Assembly: GCF_023638035.1 (NCBI RefSeq)
Contig: NZ_JAKRVX010000008.1
Location: 62,001-126,000 of the forward strand
DNA: 64,000 nucleotides
Reading direction: 5' to 3'
Source of the DNA: Natronocalculus amylovorans
Lineage (GTDB): Archaea; Halobacteriota; Halobacteria; Halobacteriales; Haloferacaceae
The translations under genes were made by a program, and so were the position numbers. The notes below the pieces were generated by a model. That model was not told the origin of the DNA. It saw nothing but the letters and a program-made list of their open reading frames with translations, and did no database searches. Below are positions 9,904-51,425 of the stretch, one piece after another (the first letter of the stretch is position 1; each line of letters begins with the position of its first letter).

Positions 9904-11331
9904 ATGTCAACTAGACCGTTTGTTATTGTTGGTGGAGATGCTGCCGGGTTAAGTGCTGCAAGCAAGTGCAAGCGCGAGGAACCAGATCGCGATGTGATCG
10001 TTTTTGAAAAAGGAAATTGGATCTCATACGCCCATTGCGGACTTCCGTATTTTATTGGGGGCGTTGTTGACTCGCTTTCGGACCTTCTCTCACTCTCGCC
10101 GACACAAGTCAGAGAGCGTGGAATCGATCTCCGCCGAAATCATGAAGTGATCGCGGTTAACCCAGCAGAACAAACGGTAACTGTTCGCTGCGAAAAGACG
10201 ACGTTCGAACAGCCATTTGGCGATCTTCTCATTGGAACCGGTGCTCGACCCGTTTCTGGACCGTTTGATCTTTCAACGCTTGATGGCGTGTTTACGGTGC
10301 ATGGGATCGATAGTGCCGCAGCGATCGATGCGTATCTATCTGATCCGGAGGCGTATGATGAATCTACGCTTGGAGAAGGGCCGGTTGATCGCGATCAAAT
10401 TACTCATAATCGACAGTTTTCGTCTCCACATACGGCAGCGATCGTTGGCGGTGGCTATGTTGGCGTTGAGATGGCTGAAGCGCTCATCGAACGTGGACTT
10501 GATGTACACCTGTTTCAGCGTTCGGGGCATATTCTCCCACCGTTTGGCGACTCGATCGCAGCTGTTGTTGAGCCGCATCTACGTTCAAAAGGTGTTCACG
10601 TCCACACAAACACACCTGTCACCAGGCTTGTTGGTGATGACGATGGCCGGGTTAGTGGCGTCCAGACTGCCTCGGAAACAATCGATGCGCAGCTTGTTAT
10701 TGTTGGCGTTGGGATCCGTCCGAATACCGATCTTCTCTCCGAGACCGAGATCTCGATTGGCGAAGGCAGTGCGATCCGGACCGACGAATACGGGCGTACG
10801 TCACTCCAGAATATCTACGCGGCTGGTGATGTTGCAACATCAACGCACACCGTTACTGGTGAGGAGACGTGGGTTCCGCTCGGCCTTACCGCAAATAGAG
10901 CAGGGCGAGCGATTGGAACAACCGTTGCCGGTACGGAAACGTCGGTTGGTGAGATTGCAGGGACTGCAGTGTTGAAAGCGTTTGATTTGGAGTGTGGTCG
11001 AACCGGAATTATTGACAAAGATGATGCGCGAAATCATGGATTCGACCCAATTTCGGCGACAATTACTGCGGGCTCTCGATCGGGCTACTACCCTGGAAAC
11101 TCCGAGACTACGGTTACATTGGTCTGTGATCAACAGACAGAGCGGCTTCTTGGTGGTGCGATTGTTGGCTCCGATCGCGCAGCCGTCCGCATCAATACGA
11201 TCGCAACCGCGTTACAAGCAGATCGTACCGTTTCCGACGTTGAGCAGCTTGATCTTGCGTATGCTCCACCGTTTAGCCCGGTGTGGGACCCAATTCTTGT
11301 CGCGGCAAAAGTTCTTAACGGCAAACTCTGA
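9904..11331 (+). CDS. FAD-dependent pyridine nucleotide-disulfide oxidoreductase, CoA-disulfide reductase-like
   Basis: 475 residues. N-terminal FAD motif [14 protein letters not shown], a single redox cysteine Cys45 in [10 protein letters not shown], a second Rossmann motif [14 protein letters not shown] for NAD(P)H, and the flavin-contacting YAAGDVA. One active cysteine in this position typifies CoA-disulfide reductases, NADH oxidases and peroxidases. Haloarchaea use gamma-glutamylcysteine as major thiol, so a CoA-disulfide role here is family inference. The ATG at 9904 is preferred to a GTG two codons upstream. It faces the cyclophilin gene with about 100 bp of shared promoter region. Confidence 0.88.
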
Positions 11332-44842: not shown

Positions 44843-45292
44843 TCACTTGGACGACCACAGTGTTTCTACACGTTGTTCTATTGCCGTGAGAACGGTAGAG
44901 TATACCTCGAGTGGATGGAGCGACGGGAGTTCGAGGTCAGTAATTGTGGTTGCAGTCGGTGGCTTGTGGAAGTGCAACCGGGTGTTGTGCGTGTTCGGGT
45001 GCCGGTCCCAGCGACACTCCCAGCGCTCCCCGTCCTCGTGGTCTTCGACGTAGTGGACTGAGAAATCACCAGTCGTGAACCAGCGGATGTCGAGACGGGC
45101 CACGTTCACTGATTCCGGGTATCGTCCAGCGTCGAGCAGTCCACGAAGCAGTCGAGGTTCGTATGAATCCGGGTCGAACATAGTCTCGGTGATAAGTGAA
45201 TCCGATGAAAGGTGCCGCTCCAGCAGGCGCAGCGTCTGTCGATCTGGTGGACCTGTCGAGTGTGAGGCTCGACTCTCCGGTGGCTGGCTCAT
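44843..45292 (-). CDS. Small conserved haloarchaeal partner of a winged-helix protein
   Basis: 149 residues. The core RLDIRWFTTGDFSVHYVED, then WECRWDRHPNTHNTRLHFHKPP and a C-terminal helix EQRVETLW form a pattern I recall from haloarchaeal genes that travel directly behind a DUF7342-type winged-helix gene, as here (the two abut). The His- and Arg-rich block suggests a nucleic-acid or metal-binding active site, but no function is established. More GC-rich than its surroundings, which suggests transfer. Toxin of a toxin-antitoxin-like pair is one possibility. Confidence 0.65.
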   Translation of the reverse strand: MSQPPESRASHSTGPPDRQTLRLLERHLSSDSLITETMFDPDSYEPRLLRGLLDAGRYPESVNVARLDIRWFTTGDFSVHYVEDHEDGERWECRWDRHPNTHNTRLHFHKPPTATTITDLELPSLHPLEVYSTVLTAIEQRVETLWSSK

Positions 45293-45820
45293 TTACGCTG
45301 GAATTAGATGCCCGTCGTTCTGGGAGAGCTGGCGAGCAAGTTCGTACAGTCTTATATCGCGAATTACGCCCTGCCACTCACTGACTGCGGTCATCCGCTC
45401 GTGAATAGTCTCGTGACTATCGTGATCAAATACGTTGACGGTCGTTGGGTCGGTCGTTTCGAATCGCGCTTCATATTCCGCCTGCTGGGATTCAAGCGCC
45501 TCTACGCGATCGATTATTTCCTCGATAGAGAGTGCGGTTGTGATTCGACTGGCGTCTTGCCATTCGAGATATCCCTCGTTTCGTTCGTATGTCGCCGGTC
45601 GGCTGTCTCGATCGGCCTGAGCGATGCCCATCTCGGCCAAGCGGTCGAGATGCTTTTTCGCGGCATTCGGAGAGCAGTCCGCAAGCTCAGCGATCTCGGT
45701 GTACGCTGTCGGAGCGGAGACTCCGAGGACGACGTCGTAGACACGACCAAACGTGTCTGTTCCCGTCTGCCACCGCCGCTGCGTATTGTCGGACATGGGG
45801 GCCGGATCGAACTTGGTCAT
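45293..45820 (-). CDS. Winged-helix protein (DUF7342-like)
   Basis: 175 residues from ATG 45820; an ATG at 45796 is also possible. A winged helix spans about 25-100: GVSAPTAYTEIAELADCSPNAAKKHLDRLAEMGIAQ, then SRPATYERNEGYLEW. A coiled segment follows (IIDRVEALESQQAEYEARF), probably for dimerisation. It directly precedes its partner gene with no gap. Likely DNA-binding and self-regulating. Higher GC than the neighbouring helicase operon, with which it is divergent. Confidence 0.75.
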   Translation of the reverse strand: MTKFDPAPMSDNTQRRWQTGTDTFGRVYDVVLGVSAPTAYTEIAELADCSPNAAKKHLDRLAEMGIAQADRDSRPATYERNEGYLEWQDASRITTALSIEEIIDRVEALESQQAEYEARFETTDPTTVNVFDHDSHETIHERMTAVSEWQGVIRDIRLYELARQLSQNDGHLIPA

Positions 45821-45832
45821 ACCTATCTGTAG

Positions 45833-48613
45833 GTGGCTTCTCTCAATATATCTTTGGATTATTCAAATATATGTAAGAAAGTGCTGTGTTGGGTTACATA
45901 TGCTCTTGAAACACTCACGCAAGCCACGCTACCGATCGATCGAAAGGCAGAGCTGATTATCTCCGATTCAGCTAGGGCCACTGATTGGCCCACCACGACC
46001 TATTTATCAAATAAACTGACACATACGTATGTGCCAATCTCCCGAGCAAAACCGATCGGCAGTCTCTATGAGGATGTCGCAGACTACGATCTCGTGGTCG
46101 TCTCTGACCCTCCGATCGCAGACGCCCTGAACAACCGTCTCAGACGACCACATATTGGATCTTTTGCAGTCACACCACGTCGGCTTGCAACCGGTCGAAA
46201 AGAGCCAGCAGAGGACCGAACCGCGTTTTTGTCTATTCTTGAAGAGACTGATCTCTCATGGAAAGAGTTAGCCCGGATTATTGGAGACATCATCCAGTGC
46301 TGGGAAGAAACAGCAGCCCCCGATCGAATTCTCTCGTATGAGCGATACGACACCCCTGCCGTCCGATCGGTGCTTACCAAACTCAAATCATTGGATACGA
46401 CGTCAAGATTGCTGACGGAGTATCAGATACCGAACACGCAACGAGTTGCAGTGGTCGGTGAAAACCAACTGACGCCGTTGGAGCAGTCCATCCTCCCGGA
46501 AGAATACGATACGATCGATCTATTCACTGATGATGCGTTTCCGCATCCACCGTTTAGGATATTTAACTCACGAACTGCGATTGTTGATGCATTACTTGAT
46601 ACGATTAGCGAAGAAAATGCAGAAGACATTGCGATCGTTCTCGATGGATCAAGTCAGTATTCATCGTTAATTGAGTCAGCACTCGAAACAGCAAATATTC
46701 CATTCTACGGTGGTCCAGGGTTCAACGACGAGCCGGACCATCGATTGTACATTCAACTGCTTCGGACCGCAACGGCCGGATCAAACACTCGTGTTGCATC
46801 GGTCCAACCATTGTTAGAGCAGCTCGATTGCAACGTCGATCCCAAACATGCCGACAAGCGATTGGACTCGGTTGATTCTGGGTGGTTCGATCGGTTCAGT
46901 GCAACGATCGACAACGAAACATTTGGCTCTGCTCTCACTGCATTTGAGACACGACGATCAGTAACGCTCGAACAGTTCCGAGACGAATTGACAAAGCTTG
47001 GGATTATCGACCAACCAGTAACCACGAATCGAGTAGACCAACTCGAATTTTATTTGGATAGTTACGAAGTCCCAATCGATCGAGAGAATGAGGGTGTGTT
47101 GCTTGCAGATGCAACGTCTGCTGCCTACGTTGATCGCCTCGTTGTCTTTGCGATCGGGTTAGATGATGGTTGGATGCGAGCAGTACCAAATCGTCCATGG
47201 ACCGACGAAGATGCAGTGTATCAACGGAACATTGGACAGTTTCAACACTTGCTGCAAAGCGGTGTCGAACAGTACTATCTCGTTGAAGACGCACAAGGTG
47301 GCCAACCAGTAACTCCGTGTTTGTACTTTGAAGATCTTCTTGAGACACCATATGAACGCTTCAGTGATCTTCGATCGATCCAACACACCCGTACGCATCG
47401 GGCTCGAGGAGATGGGTTTTCGCACACACCACTTGATGACCCGATTGATCCTACCCACGTCAATTCGATGAGCCAGTCTGCACTCAACAACTACGTACAC
47501 TCTCCACGTGACTACTTTTTTGACCGACTTCTCTCATCACCGGATAAGATCTACTTTACAGAAGGACAACTGTTTCACGACTTTGCAGAGTTCTACGTCA
47601 ATCATCCCGAATTGATTGCATCAACATCAGTCGGCGAGTTACTGGAGTTCATGCTAGATCAGACCGATCCATTTCTTCGGACGATCGATCGGGAGACACA
47701 GCGAACTCGGTTCAATGCAGGGGTAACGACACTCATGGAGTTCCTCGATGAGCATCAACCGACACATTCGATCGCAATTGCAGAAGAGAGTGGATTTGGT
47801 GAGAATGTGTTTGAAACATACTTCGACAAAGAGTGTGATAGCCCAGTTACAGAGCGATATTTCACCGATGACACGCTGAGTATCCATGGGCTCATTGATT
47901 ACGTGTACAAACCAACGCACTTGATCGACTACAAGACTGGTGCGCAAAAAAGCCGCTCAAAGGTTGTCAAACACTCTGCGATCGATCCACCAACAACAAA
48001 GCCGAATTTCCAAGCGCTGCTGTATCTCACGTATCAACGACGTCAACAGCCTGATGAAGTGCTTTCGTTCACGTTCGTGCATTTCATGGAGGCGATCGAT
48101 GACGTTGTCAATCCGAACGAGACACCAAATCTAGAAGATATCCAAACAACTGTTCGGTACTATCCAGAATTATTCGCCTCATTTGCTGAGAGCCAAACTG
48201 CTTACGAAGAGCTTTGTAATGGATACAAAGACTGTAGCGGGACGTTTACTGCACTTGGCTACCTATCGTATCAGTCACTTATGACTACGCATCCATTTCC
48301 AGACCAACCGATCGATGAGCTCCGCGACTCTGCGTATGCTGACAACTTCACAGAAGCGATCGAAAAATCAGTTAGTGGGATTGATGCGGATGTGGAAAAA
48401 GGCTGTGACCAAGCACTCAGAGCGCTTGATAAGATTCGAAAGCGCAACTATTTTAGAGAAGATCTTGATGCCTTCGAGTCATTTCTCGAAGGCCAGCGAT
48501 CGGAGCTCAACGATCGACACCAAACACACGAACGCTTCCCAGTGACCGGCCTTGCTGGAGAGACCACCGATCGGTATCTGAACCACCGTGATTTACTTCT
48601 TGGACATGACTAA
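45833..48613 (+). CDS. AddB-like PD-(D/E)XK nuclease subunit
   Basis: 926 residues from a GTG; the true start may be later, since the segment recognisable from homologues begins near SNKLTHTYVPISRAKPIGSL. The N-terminal two thirds is a helicase-like scaffold with no usable Walker A. The C-terminal part has a RecB-family nuclease motif: SIHGLIDYVYKPTHLIDYKTGA (about 684-705; catalytic Asp, Asp and Lys). With the overlapping helicase gene this resembles the AddA/AddB double-strand-break processing pair. It overlaps the next ATG by 8 nt. Division of labour inferred. Confidence 0.8.
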   Translation: MASLNISLDYSNICKKVLCWVTYALETLTQATLPIDRKAELIISDSARATDWPTTTYLSNKLTHTYVPISRAKPIGSLYEDVADYDLVVVSDPPIADALNNRLRRPHIGSFAVTPRRLATGRKEPAEDRTAFLSILEETDLSWKELARIIGDIIQCWEETAAPDRILSYERYDTPAVRSVLTKLKSLDTTSRLLTEYQIPNTQRVAVVGENQLTPLEQSILPEEYDTIDLFTDDAFPHPPFRIFNSRTAIVDALLDTISEENAEDIAIVLDGSSQYSSLIESALETANIPFYGGPGFNDEPDHRLYIQLLRTATAGSNTRVASVQPLLEQLDCNVDPKHADKRLDSVDSGWFDRFSATIDNETFGSALTAFETRRSVTLEQFRDELTKLGIIDQPVTTNRVDQLEFYLDSYEVPIDRENEGVLLADATSAAYVDRLVVFAIGLDDGWMRAVPNRPWTDEDAVYQRNIGQFQHLLQSGVEQYYLVEDAQGGQPVTPCLYFEDLLETPYERFSDLRSIQHTRTHRARGDGFSHTPLDDPIDPTHVNSMSQSALNNYVHSPRDYFFDRLLSSPDKIYFTEGQLFHDFAEFYVNHPELIASTSVGELLEFMLDQTDPFLRTIDRETQRTRFNAGVTTLMEFLDEHQPTHSIAIAEESGFGENVFETYFDKECDSPVTERYFTDDTLSIHGLIDYVYKPTHLIDYKTGAQKSRSKVVKHSAIDPPTTKPNFQALLYLTYQRRQQPDEVLSFTFVHFMEAIDDVVNPNETPNLEDIQTTVRYYPELFASFAESQTAYEELCNGYKDCSGTFTALGYLSYQSLMTTHPFPDQPIDELRDSAYADNFTEAIEKSVSGIDADVEKGCDQALRALDKIRKRNYFREDLDAFESFLEGQRSELNDRHQTHERFPVTGLAGETTDRYLNHRDLLLGHD

Positions 48614-51425
48614 TCCAAACCCATCCCAACAACGATTGATCGATAGTACAGACGGCCTCTACCTCGTCGACGCAGGTGCAGGCACTGGTAAGACGTTCAG
48701 TGTAACGCGGCGCTACTCTGCGATTGTGGATCAACCTTCAGTTGAGCCTGAAGACGTTGTCTTGATTACCTTTACTCGCAACGCTGCCCGAGAAATGAAA
48801 GATCGGATTGTTAGTCACAGTAGCTACACCACAAGAGAACTAGCCGACGCACCGATCCAAACCTTCCATAGCCTCTGTAGTAATATTCTCGATCGATACG
48901 GCTCAAACGCACCACAGTACCTCGGAATTGACGATACGCTCAGTCGGTCGTCAGATGTAATCGAGGAAAGTGCAATTGAGTCTTCGCTCTTTGCAGAGTT
49001 CATATCCACATTCACTGATAGCTGTCCAGAACATCACCCAATTCTCCGAGTTGTAACAAACCCCGGAGAGCTCCGATCGGTTTTGAATAATCTTGCTGCA
49101 CGTGGTATCTTCCCGACGAAGGACGGGTGGTACCGAGATGGCCGATCGAAGCTGCTGGGCGATTTGGATGGGCTTCTTGACGCCGTCGAGGCGGTCAATC
49201 AACCGCGAAATGGTGGTCGCAAGCAATCGGAGCTCAAGAAAAAGCTATACCGTTACGGGAAGGACTCAACCTTCCTTCCAGATGCTCTTTCAAAGCCCAC
49301 TGTCAGAGGCAATGAAAAAGCAGTTCCAGTCGACCCAATTAAAACAGCGTTCAATAGTGATCGATCTGATCTTATCGCGTTTATACACGATCTGTATTTT
49401 TCATATTTAGAGTTTGCACTCGCTCGGAATTATCTGACGTTCAGTATGTTGCAACTCTACACGTTTGTCTTACTCTGTGAGGACCCAGACACTCGGAGTG
49501 AGCTTGCATTTGAGTACACGATGATCGATGAGTTTCAAGACACCAGTGAGATCCAGTTCAAGCTTGCTCTATTGCTCGCTGGAACGGAGAATATCTGCGT
49601 TGTTGGCGACTGGAAACAGAGTATCTACTCCTTCCAATACGCAACTGTCGAAAACATCACACAGTTCGGAGATCGACTCACACAATTCACAAACGAGCTT
49701 AACAGTAACCATACCCGAATTACATATCCAACTACACCTGTTGAGACCATCGAATTAGAACAGAACTACCGATCGACACAGGAGATTCTTGATTTTGCAG
49801 AACATGCACTCACGACTCCAAGCAAAAAATCGGAATCGATCGACGCAGAATCGATCCGTGAGAGGATTGTTCATCTCTTTTCAAATAGCACATACGACGA
49901 AACACAGATAGAGGCACTTCAGAGTCAAGACGAGACGCTTGCAGTGCTCTCGAAGATCGACGAGATTGTTGGGAATCCAGCGTATGCGATCGAACAAGAT
50001 GGTGATCTCATTGAACCCTCCTACGGAGATATTGCCGTGCTCACCCGAACACATGACTTTGGACGAGAGCTTCTCTCGGTTGCTGAGGAGTATCATCTCC
50101 CAGTTGCATACGAAGGTGGTGTTGAGTTATTCCGATCGGATGCTGCCAAACGGTTGCTTGCATGGCTTCGGATTCTTGAATCAGATGCTGATCGAGGATG
50201 GTCGCTTGTACTGGAGGATGCTGGCTATGGGATGAGTGAGATCAAACACATCCTCAAAAAAGAGGCCTACCCTACAGAGATGATCGAGTTCCGGGACGCG
50301 TTAGCATCACTTACTGTCGTTAGTAGCGTGGCTAGGCGTGTCTTTGATCGCTATGGACACGATGGACCGATAGCAGATGCATTGGTTGGACAAATTCAGT
50401 CTGCACATGACCAAACGACAATGACAATCGGTGATCTTTCACAGTACATCAAAACCAATATTGAAAATGGTAACACGTACGATATTTCGACCCCCGCGGG
50501 GACTGACTCAGTAACGGTCCAGACTATCCACGCGGCAAAAGGGCTGGAGTACCCGATCGTGATTGTCGCAAATATGAATCAACGGAAGTTCCCTCCATCT
50601 GGGGGTGGGCCGACTGCTATTTCGTACGATTCGCTCATTGGAATACGACAACGGTACCTCTACGACGACGTACACAGCCAGCCACATCAGTATGATAATT
50701 GGCGATATGATCTCCTGAATAAGTGCCTCCCGGATCAGGCTGATGAAGAACGACGACTGCTCTATGTTGCGATCACACGGGCGCAACAGCATGTCCTGTT
50801 CACTGCACAGGAGCCAAATCAATTTCTCACAGACCTTCCGGTACCGATCGACGAATACGAGCCATCAGAGCCAACGGAAGAAACGCAACAGACTGAGCAG
50901 TCAACACTCTCGGTGCCAATTCCAGATGTTGAAGAGCCAGTCGGATACTCTCCACACTCACTCATGGCAGAGGAGGTGTATGAGTCCGTGACTGAAGGCC
51001 GTGGAATGGATTTCGGTACGCAGGTTCACGAATTTGCTGAAGACTATGTTGCAGGTATCACAACTGAGCCAACAAACGATGACGAACGGGCAGTAGTTTC
51101 ATTGATTGATTCACTAACTGGTGAGATCCATATGGAAGAAGACGTCTATCTGCCACTCACCGCTGATGGAGCCGACGTGATGGTCCGTGGGATCGTTGAT
51201 CTCTTTTGTGTTCATGACGACCGAGTTGAAATTATTGATTTCAAAACCGACCTCTCTCGGTATGCCGAGTCGGAGTATCAAAAACAGCTCAGTGTGTACT
51301 ATCACGTCATCCGGTCAGTGTATCCCGATCGACAGGTGTCTGTCGAGATATTGTATACTGCCACCGGTGAGCGACAACCGATTGAACCACTATCAAAAAA
51401 TGATCTCGAGGAACTAATAAAGTAG
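48606..51425 (+). CDS. AddA-like UvrD-superfamily helicase with RecB-type nuclease domain
   Basis: 939 residues. Superfamily 1 motifs in order: I GAGTGKTF (24-31), Ia LITFTRNAAREM, II IDEFQDTS (about 307-314), III VVGDWKQSIYSFQ, IV/V VQTIHAAKGLEYPIVIVAN, VI RRLLYVAITRAQQHV. The C-terminal nuclease has VMVRGIVDLF and VEIIDFKTD. Thus one chain holds both helicase and nuclease, as AddA does. It is coupled to the AddB-like gene by an 8-nt overlap. Predicted role: resection of double-strand breaks for RadA-dependent repair, alongside or instead of Mre11-Rad50/HerA-NurA. Not assayable from sequence. Confidence 0.85.
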   Translation: MTNPNPSQQRLIDSTDGLYLVDAGAGTGKTFSVTRRYSAIVDQPSVEPEDVVLITFTRNAAREMKDRIVSHSSYTTRELADAPIQTFHSLCSNILDRYGSNAPQYLGIDDTLSRSSDVIEESAIESSLFAEFISTFTDSCPEHHPILRVVTNPGELRSVLNNLAARGIFPTKDGWYRDGRSKLLGDLDGLLDAVEAVNQPRNGGRKQSELKKKLYRYGKDSTFLPDALSKPTVRGNEKAVPVDPIKTAFNSDRSDLIAFIHDLYFSYLEFALARNYLTFSMLQLYTFVLLCEDPDTRSELAFEYTMIDEFQDTSEIQFKLALLLAGTENICVVGDWKQSIYSFQYATVENITQFGDRLTQFTNELNSNHTRITYPTTPVETIELEQNYRSTQEILDFAEHALTTPSKKSESIDAESIRERIVHLFSNSTYDETQIEALQSQDETLAVLSKIDEIVGNPAYAIEQDGDLIEPSYGDIAVLTRTHDFGRELLSVAEEYHLPVAYEGGVELFRSDAAKRLLAWLRILESDADRGWSLVLEDAGYGMSEIKHILKKEAYPTEMIEFRDALASLTVVSSVARRVFDRYGHDGPIADALVGQIQSAHDQTTMTIGDLSQYIKTNIENGNTYDISTPAGTDSVTVQTIHAAKGLEYPIVIVANMNQRKFPPSGGGPTAISYDSLIGIRQRYLYDDVHSQPHQYDNWRYDLLNKCLPDQADEERRLLYVAITRAQQHVLFTAQEPNQFLTDLPVPIDEYEPSEPTEETQQTEQSTLSVPIPDVEEPVGYSPHSLMAEEVYESVTEGRGMDFGTQVHEFAEDYVAGITTEPTNDDERAVVSLIDSLTGEIHMEEDVYLPLTADGADVMVRGIVDLFCVHDDRVEIIDFKTDLSRYAESEYQKQLSVYYHVIRSVYPDRQVSVEILYTATGERQPIEPLSKNDLEELIK

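What the first reader, a model, noticed from the sequence alone, without database searches (positions are those of the whole stretch)
45833..51425. AddA/AddB-like helicase-nuclease operon in an archaeon
The first gene has a RecB-type nuclease core (IDYKTG) without a working Walker A. The overlapping second gene has all UvrD motifs plus its own nuclease (IDFKTD). This dual-nuclease arrangement mirrors bacterial AddAB, which is not the standard archaeal break-resection machinery. Which DNA signal, if any, regulates it is unknown; the abundant CGATCG hexamer would be a candidate Chi-like word to test.
Basis: partly seen in the sequence, partly recalled or inferred. Interest (0 to 1): 0.55.

Follow-up and report, generated by a model that had tools for sequence, protein, structure and literature searches.

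The report
Mobile archaeal AddAB-like helicase-nuclease pair
Two neighbouring genes of this salt-loving archaeon encode a DNA-unwinding and DNA-cutting enzyme pair built like the bacterial break-processing machine AddAB; the pair moves between salt-loving archaea as a unit and often sits beside virus-defence genes, so it may protect against foreign DNA rather than do routine repair.

Summary
The pair is real. Gene A (48606-51425) is a complete UvrD-type helicase with a second RecB-type nuclease. Single-chain AlphaFold models have AddB and AddA as first Foldseek hits. Membership of AddAB proper is not fully met: no P-loop in B (0 of 47), no four-cysteine Fe-S set, no sequence-level match to AddB. 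A tree with bacterial AddAB and a heterodimer model were not made. The pair is a self-contained cassette: A follows B in 48 of 50 and 71 of 72 loci. It occurs in 94 of 243 genomes of the order and on plasmids. A and B identities correlate (r 0.93) but only weakly follow RpoB (about 0.2). Methyltransferase or SF2-helicase genes lie within 7 kb in 16 of 40 loci against 3 of 40 controls, though not at the window's own copy. The genome also has Rad50-like and NurA genes and a second, cysteine-bearing AddAB-like operon. Best reading: a mobile AddAB-type DNA-end-degrading enzyme, more likely for defence than core repair. CGATCG is palindromic, a poor Chi candidate. New variant of a known kind.

The parts
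46001..46007 (+). TATA-like promoter box (TATTTAT) for a leaderless B-A transcript
   Evidence: Window sequence; T-rich box about -30 to -26 before the start codon across 48 loci; in the window it lies at -30 to -24. Promoter function is inferred.
46031..48613 (+). gene B, AddB-like subunit, 860 aa, GTG start
   Evidence: Relatives begin at this residue; Pfam PDDEXK_1; AlphaFold model with AddB as first Foldseek hit.
46031..47425 (+). B residues 1-465: UvrD-like fold without P-loop
   Evidence: VIA-align to UvrD and AddB over this range; Walker A pattern in 0 of 47 members. Domain border approximate.
47462..48610 (+). B residues 478-860: RecB/Cas4-type nuclease domain
   Evidence: Pfam PDDEXK_1; structural match to Cas4-family ACE1 and RecE; H516, D623, D633, K635, Q661, Y665 invariant in 47 of 47. 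Domain border approximate.
47897..47935 (+). B nuclease core, D623 to K635 (contains LIDYK)
48606..51425 (+). gene A, AddA-like subunit, 939 aa (945 aa if GTG 48588 is used); overlaps the end of B by 8 bases
   Evidence: Pfam UvrD-helicase, UvrD_C, PDDEXK_1; AddA first Foldseek hit.
48669..48695 (+). A Walker A (DAGAGTGKT)
   Evidence: Walker A pattern in 47 of 47 members.
51027..51299 (+). A nuclease residues H808 to Y898, including IDFKTD
   Evidence: Invariant in 47 of 47, K880 in 46 of 47.

Best explanation
An AddAB-type, ATP-driven helicase-nuclease heterodimer. A is the only motor: it loads at a DNA end and unwinds 3'-5'. B is a motor-dead, UvrD-folded clamp. The two nuclease domains cut the two separated strands. 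The gene pair is a self-contained mobile cassette of haloarchaea, carried on plasmids and islands, in this genome beside Rad50-like and NurA genes. Its most likely role is to destroy foreign linear or broken DNA, for example ends made by neighbouring restriction, BREX or DISARM-type systems. Shown: domains, motifs, invariant catalytic residues, predicted subunit folds, co-inheritance as a pair, largely species-independent relationships, enrichment near defence-type genes. Inferred: assembly as a heterodimer, polarity, strand assignment, defence role. Confidence is about 0.85 for the biochemical class and about 0.5 for a defence role; the figure given is for the whole.
For: Folds: B to AddB (697 residues aligned over nearly the full length), A to AddA. 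Catalytic residues invariant. A directly behind B on the same strand in 48 of 50 unnamed-genome loci and 71 of 72 further named loci (gaps -23 to 347 bases). No other gene cluster shared by more than 8 of 50 loci. Patchy: 94 of 243 genomes, 48 of 78 genera. A-B identity correlation 0.93 (0 of 2000 permutations reach it) against 0.21 and 0.23 with RpoB in 29 genomes. 34 PLSDB plasmid records match, 33 over at least 80% of B. Methyltransferase or SF2-helicase motifs within 7 kb in 16 of 40 loci against 3 of 40 control regions, p 0.0012; 16 of 54 further named loci against the same controls, p 0.009. PADLOC hits of the nearest genes include DrmD, DrmA and BrxHII. In-place decay: remnants with internal deletions.
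Against: No experiment, no complex model. The window's own copy has no recognised defence gene near it: 0 of 8 called genes within 7 kb carry the methyltransferase or SF2-helicase motifs; the DUF7342 protein gives only weak PADLOC matches (best E 7e-4). 24 of 40 test loci have no such gene within 7 kb. The motif classes are crude and the control set is small; the replicate used the same controls and shows a lower rate (19 hits in 756 kb, against 22 in 515 kb in the first set and 7 in 560 kb in the controls). The RpoB correlations, though weak, are not nil (13 and 4 of 2000 permutations reach them), so some vertical descent is present. No copy was found in phage records or IMG/VR. A's helicase part is closer in sequence to PcrA/UvrD than to AddA.
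Confidence: 0.6

Rival explanations
1. A recombinational-repair resection enzyme, a haloarchaeal counterpart of bacterial AddAB, acting at chromosomal breaks and perhaps attenuated by an unknown Chi-like word.
For: Full-length fold match to AddAB subunits; dual nucleases kept intact; weak but non-zero RpoB correlation; bacterial AddAB does this (established knowledge).
Against: Present in only 94 of 243 genomes of the order; weak relation to species distances; Rad50-like and NurA genes already present in this genome; no Chi known; CGATCG is palindromic.
Confidence: 0.25
2. A plasmid- or megaplasmid-maintenance enzyme that processes replication or recombination intermediates of haloarchaeal replicons.
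For: 34 PLSDB plasmid records match; ParA, orc1/cdc6 or a site-specific integrase within 10 kb in 5 of 8 annotated plasmid regions.
Against: Also on large contigs: 18 of 40 test contigs exceed 1.5 Mb. No constant plasmid gene beside it.
Confidence: 0.12
3. Two nuclease-bearing proteins that only share an operon: A belongs to the UvrD-Cas4-like fusion family and B is an independent nuclease.
For: UvrD-Cas4-like fusions exist in bacteria and mesophilic archaea, in defence contexts (PMC5704561, passages); B has no sequence match to AddB.
Against: Strict A-B linkage and full-length AddB fold match of B. Co-transfer alone could, however, produce the A-B identity correlation.
Confidence: 0.08

Closest known systems
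Bacterial AddAB (RexAB), Bacillus type
   Same: Two genes in the order B-A; A with SF1A motor plus RecB-type nuclease; B with motor-dead UvrD fold plus RecB-type nuclease; first PDB fold hit for both subunits.
   Different: Subunits shorter (860 and 939 aa against AddB chains of 1132-1156 and an AddA of 1232 residues). No P-loop and no four-cysteine set in B. No sequence-level match of B to AddB; A scores far below the AddA cut-off.
AdnAB of mycobacteria
   Same: Heterodimer with two nucleases (recalled); AdnA is fourth among the fold hits of B.
   Different: B keeps no Walker A; AdnA is not B's best hit.
RecBCD
   Same: RecC-like fold of B and RecB-like fold of A among the hits.
   Different: Two subunits; B's nuclease residues are intact, whereas RecC's nuclease-like domain is inactive (recalled).
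UvrD-Cas4-like fusions (PMC5704561)
   Same: UvrD helicase fused to a pfam12705 nuclease; present in mesophilic archaea; links to defence genes (passages).
   Different: The passages I saw name no AddB-like partner; A here lacks the CxxC..C pattern (0 of 47). Whether A falls in that clade was not tested.
Gabija GajB
   Same: UvrD-type helicase; many PADLOC GajB models match A.
   Different: A is longer, carries its own nuclease, and its partner is B rather than an OLD nuclease (GajA recalled).
Second AddAB-like operon of the same genome (L035 5860-12426)
   Same: Walker-less first protein, a nuclease, and a UvrD-nuclease fusion with Walker A.
   Different: Three genes; C-x2-C..C cysteines in the nuclease and in the fusion protein; first gene in 79 of 243 genomes.

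Membership tests
AddAB | addB directly upstream of addA in one operon | tested here: met
   8-base overlap in the window; A directly behind B in 48 of 50 and 71 of 72 loci.
AddAB | AddA: complete SF1A motifs plus C-terminal RecB-type nuclease | tested here: met
   Pfam; all 15 tested residues invariant in 47 of 47 except K880 in 46 of 47 (motif names recalled); AddA first Foldseek hit.
AddAB | AddA equivalog score | tested here: not met
   TIGR02785 162.6 bits against a cut-off of 707.65; the PcrA model scores higher (213.9) but is also below its cut-off.
AddAB | AddB: motor-dead UvrD fold fused to a RecB-type nuclease with intact residues | tested here: met
   (predicted model, pTM 0.50).
AddAB | AddB four-cysteine Fe-S cluster in the nuclease domain (recalled) | tested here: not met
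   C-x2-C..C pattern in 0 of 47; first cysteine of the CPR motif in 16 of 47, serine in 30 including the window (S491), alanine in 1.
AddAB | P-loop kept in AddB of Bacillus (recalled) | tested here: not met
   Walker A pattern in 0 of 47.
AddAB | sequence-level homology of B to AddB | tested here: inconclusive
   Profile A1 finds no PDB chain at E up to 1; NCBIfam finds no family for B. Homology rests on fold.
AddAB | clade membership in a tree with bacterial AddAB | not tested
AddAB | heterodimer with ATP-dependent end resection, attenuated at Chi | not testable with these tools
   Needs biochemistry; only single chains could be folded.
Known anti-phage system (PADLOC) | match to the protein set of a described system | tested here: not met
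   5 window proteins scanned: B gives only a weak Cas4d match (E 0.02), A gives UvrD-type matches (RTasHel, GajB), the DUF7342 protein weak HTH-type matches, the other two nothing.
UvrD-Cas4-like fusion | A within the monophyletic UvrD clade of PMC5704561 | not tested

The most novel reading that the evidence does not exclude
A stand-alone, laterally mobile, two-gene AddAB-type system that works as innate anti-virus or anti-plasmid immunity in haloarchaea: an AddAB freed of Chi control and of the Fe-S cluster and turned into a dedicated destroyer of foreign DNA ends.
Probability: 0.4. Interest if true: 0.68.

Novelty: new variant of a known kind. Interest (0 to 1): 0.5.

Why it matters
Archaea are usually described as resecting breaks with Mre11-Rad50 and HerA-NurA. 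A widespread AddAB-type pair in haloarchaea would show that this machine type also exists outside bacteria, in an accessory and mobile form. It gives a concrete, deletable candidate for a new defence module, and a test of whether an AddAB-fold enzyme works without a P-loop in B and without the Fe-S cluster, and whether it needs any Chi-like signal.

Tried and rejected
CGATCG as Chi-like word: it is its own reverse complement, so it has no orientation; forward and reverse counts are equal by construction (11,565 each). In the window 187 are seen against 15.0 expected from base composition and 143.9 from its own pentamers; GATC itself is in excess too (574 against 249.8). It matches the HIP1 core of cyanobacteria. 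The HIP review PMC4390886 (passages) floats a Chi-like role for methylated HIP1 sites as a possibility but states that no evidence links HIP1 to homologous recombination. A genome-wide strand-bias test of octamers was not done.

Fe-S cluster: a first reading of the consensus looked at the wrong serine (position 483) and suggested no cysteine at the CPR position. A closer count showed it, at position 491, in 16 of 47 members, without the other three cysteines, so it is reported as a vestige.

Exclusion or coupling with the second AddAB-like operon: overlap 27 of 243 genomes against 30.6 expected, p 0.33 (lists copied); no link seen.

Insertion site: the IclR-ADH genes behind the window's pair also stand behind the pair in L046, and without it in a same-genus genome (L279). 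By blastn, similarity between these two begins about 430 bases after the pair and none is found before it. Of the 12 other regions fetched around ADH relatives, on the expected side, none shows A or B; one contig (L271) ends too early to tell, and two regions overlap.

Viral carriage: no match in phage records; 42 pattern stretches but no relative in IMG/VR. Metagenomes were not searched. Rfam (gathering threshold) and tRNA scans of the window were empty. PDB sequence search with the B reading frame was empty. Mre11 and HerA were not searched for in the own genome.

Rows dropped: L082 and L083 (divergent or cut) from both alignments; L081 (B split) from the B alignment and L067 (A interrupted) from the A alignment; G195 from the RpoB comparison (RpoB match in two pieces), leaving 29 of 30; the window's own and nine other loci of the 50 from the neighbourhood test (mostly short contigs, divergent or second copies); 3 of those 40 loci and their controls from the PADLOC/Pfam neighbour scan (size limit), with proteins above 700 aa cut to 700; 17 of 71 named loci with short flanks from the replicate. 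Gene calls in these tests came from a simple ORF rule favouring acidic proteins, not from an annotation program. Tables list only the first 25 families, so a family missing there is not shown to be absent.

Literature: searches listed, by title and start of abstract, no paper on this pair in haloarchaea. I saw passages only of PMC5704561, PMC6343036, PMC6063281, PMC7776575, PMC4158269, PMC10117719, PMC9051519, PMC12839542, PMC4390886 and PMC12948488; the rest were seen as listings. The library holds open-licence papers only.
Full report
What is there. Two + strand genes overlap. B begins at GTG 46031, not at 45833: relatives align from that residue; by a nearest-start rule 45 of 48 loci have GTG there and 3 have ATG; and a T-rich box about -30 to -26 is shared (T at -29 in 92% and at -28 in 98%). 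This suggests a leaderless transcript with its own promoter; the window's box is TATTTAT at 46001-46007. A most likely begins at ATG 48606 and ends at 51425.

Anatomy. B has one Pfam match, PDDEXK_1 (E 2.4e-11); A has UvrD-helicase, UvrD_C and PDDEXK_1, beside related or weaker matches. In alignments of 47 members each, B has no Walker A in any member, while its nuclease residues H516, D623, D633, K635, Q661 and Y665 are invariant. A has Walker A in all 47; one or two tested residues from each of the regions I take for helicase motifs II to VI (motif names recalled) are invariant, and so are its nuclease residues H808, D865, D878, Q894 and Y898 (K880 in 46 of 47).

Fold. The B model has mean pLDDT 81.9 but pTM only 0.50, so its domain arrangement is uncertain. 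Its first six Foldseek hits are five AddB chains and one AdnA chain, AddB being first at E 1.4e-13; RecC and UvrD chains follow. VIA-align gives Z 16.7 to AddB 4ceh_B with 697 residues aligned (4-860) at 19.1 A rmsd. UvrD 2is4_A ties with it at Z 16.8 but covers only the helicase part (318 residues), and Cas4-family ACE1 matches the nuclease part (Z 13.9). The A model (pLDDT 86.2, pTM 0.73) has AddA as first Foldseek hit, E 3e-36. By VIA-align UvrD scores higher (Z 38.5, 453 residues) than AddA (Z 32.4, 822 residues), AddA being matched over nearly the whole length at larger rmsd. The halves therefore look like AddB and AddA. By sequence alone the case is weaker: a B profile finds no PDB chain, and A is nearer to PcrA/UvrD than to AddA.

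Differences from AddAB. B and A are shorter than the AddB and AddA chains. B lacks the P-loop that Bacillus AddB keeps (recalled). No member has the C-x2-C..C part of the Fe-S motif. The first cysteine, in a CPR motif, survives in 16 of 47 members and is serine in 30, including the window (S491). I read this as a vestige of an Fe-S ancestor.

Distribution. In the order, 94 of 243 genomes and 48 of 78 genera have B at E up to 1e-3; five of the 94 (G033, G062, G096, G134, G156) show fragments only, and several genomes, such as G158, G199, G135, G075 and G119, have two full copies. In a phylum sample, 45 of 344 genomes match; seven of the 45 have only weak matches of 21 to 27 bits, and five of these seven matches lie directly behind a match to the second operon's first gene, so they are that operon's nuclease. 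Two genomes outside the order (G244, G269) have full-length B with A adjacent. 34 PLSDB plasmids match, 33 over at least 80% of B, all with haloarchaeal names. In the genome collection 119 stretches encode relatives, of which the best 80 were kept; all 80 titles are halophilic archaea. A stands directly behind B on the same strand in 48 of 50 loci (exceptions L082 and L083, divergent or at a contig end) and in 71 of 72 further named loci (exception L188, contig end); gaps run from -23 to 347 bases.

Mobility. Over 29 genomes, A and B pairwise identities correlate at r 0.93 (0 of 2000 permutations reach it; 0.93 also after removing RpoB), but only at 0.21 (B) and 0.23 (A) with RpoB (Spearman -0.01 and 0.06). 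These weak values are still reached by only 13 and 4 of 2000 permutations, so some vertical signal remains. Of the 28 others, the genome nearest to the host by RpoB (96.9%) has B only 49% identical. Co-transfer explains the A-B correlation, so it is not proof of contact. Copies decay in place: in L195 the start of B (residues 1-47) lies about 80 bases before the end of A (825-945), and in L194 only parts remain. In L067 A is interrupted by about 1.9 kb holding two ORFs whose sizes suggest an IS200/IS605 element.

Neighbourhood. No other gene cluster is shared by more than 8 of 50 loci. I compared 40 of the 50 loci (the window's own not among them) with 40 random regions of the same contigs. 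A methyltransferase motif or an SF2-helicase motif pair occurs within 7 kb in 16 of 40 against 3 of 40 (p 0.0012; 22 motif hits in 21 genes in 515 kb against 7 in 560 kb, p 0.0026). A further 54 named loci give 16, with a lower density of 19 hits in 756 kb (p 0.009 for loci against the same controls). For the two nearest genes on each side in 37 loci (148 proteins), PADLOC models match in 271 families against 75 for 148 control proteins, led by DrmD (6 proteins against at most 2) and followed by BrxHII (5 against 1) and DrmA (5); many of these are overlapping SNF2 models, so the family counts exaggerate. Pfam shows SNF2 (6 against 2), ResIII, Eco57I and MmeI near the top for neighbours, and ABC, PAS and kinase domains for controls; the total of Pfam families is not higher for neighbours (137 against 168). 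In 8 annotated plasmid regions, BrxA stands near the pair in one and a DNA cytosine methyltransferase with a helicase in another. Against the idea: 24 of 40 loci show nothing of the kind, and the window's own copy has none in 8 called genes within 7 kb. Its neighbours are a DUF7342 HTH protein, an unknown partner and a PAS/BAT regulator upstream, and IclR, a dehydrogenase-like gene (named by my reading) and M28 peptidase, racemase, hydrolase and solute-binding genes downstream.

What else the cell has. A protein with a marginal Rad50-hook match (24.9 bits against a cut-off of 24.3) and a NurA lie about 1.5 kb apart on C20, and a second NurA on C12; Mre11 and HerA were not searched. A second AddAB-like operon of three genes lies about 62 kb before this one. 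Its first gene occurs in 79 of 243 genomes, and its nuclease and its UvrD fusion carry C-x2-C..C cysteines. So this pair is an extra, probably not the core resection machine.

Mechanism. From the anatomy and from AddAB and RecBCD biochemistry (established knowledge): A binds a DNA end and drives 3'-5' translocation, B holds the other strand, and the two nucleases cut the two strands. With no known Chi and without the Fe-S brace the enzyme may be mainly destructive. Bacterial AddAB and RecBCD are themselves reported to degrade invader DNA and to feed Cas1-Cas2 (passages of PMC9051519, and PMC12948488). Transfer, patchiness, decay and neighbours favour a defence role over core repair; I put defence near 0.5, repair near 0.25, plasmid upkeep near 0.12.

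Chi candidate. CGATCG is very abundant: its observed/expected ratio is 13.4 in the own-genome stretch L035, the highest of 50 stretches compared, with a median of 3.0. But it is a palindrome, and I view it as a HIP1-like, possibly methylation-linked word; the HIP review leaves a Chi-like role open without evidence (passages).

Known or new. The parts are SF1 helicase and PD-(D/E)XK folds. In the eight plasmid regions I opened, A is annotated as ATP-dependent DNA helicase in 8 of 8 and B as PD-(D/E)XK nuclease family protein in 7 of 8 (none listed). The nearest printed family I saw is the UvrD-Cas4-like fusions of PMC5704561 (passages). My seven searches listed no paper on this pair. I rate it a new variant of a known kind.

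Noticed in passing
L035 5860-12426 (own genome C19:39859-46425, about 16 kb before the window): Second AddAB-like system of three overlapping genes: Walker-less helicase-like protein (731 aa), separate cysteine-bearing Cas4-like nuclease (293 aa) and a UvrD-nuclease fusion (1166 aa). 79 of 243 genomes of the order match the first gene.
   Followed up: partly
whole genome; window 1-64000: CGATCG occurs 11,565 times in 3.26 Mb (reversed word 197) and 187 times in the window; HIP1-like over-representation, strongest of 50 stretches compared.
   Followed up: partly
window 44843-45820: DUF7342 winged-HTH protein and an unknown 149-aa partner, divergent from the B-A pair; the same two clusters recur side by side in L045. 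Possibly a regulator or toxin-antitoxin-like pair.
   Followed up: no
L195 about 9960-10550; L194 8530-10360: Decayed cassettes; in L195 the start of B lies next to the end of A.
   Followed up: partly
L067: Gene A interrupted between residues 823 and 827 by about 1.9 kb holding two ORFs (419 and 138 aa), probably an IS200/IS605-type element.
   Followed up: no
own genome C20 and C12 (L269, L270): Two NurA-family genes, one beside a Rad50-like protein. The control search also rings in Haloferax volcanii, although PMC7776575 says NurA is not present there (passage).
   Followed up: no
L082, L083: B-like proteins only about 24% identical to the window's; a possible further subfamily.
   Followed up: no
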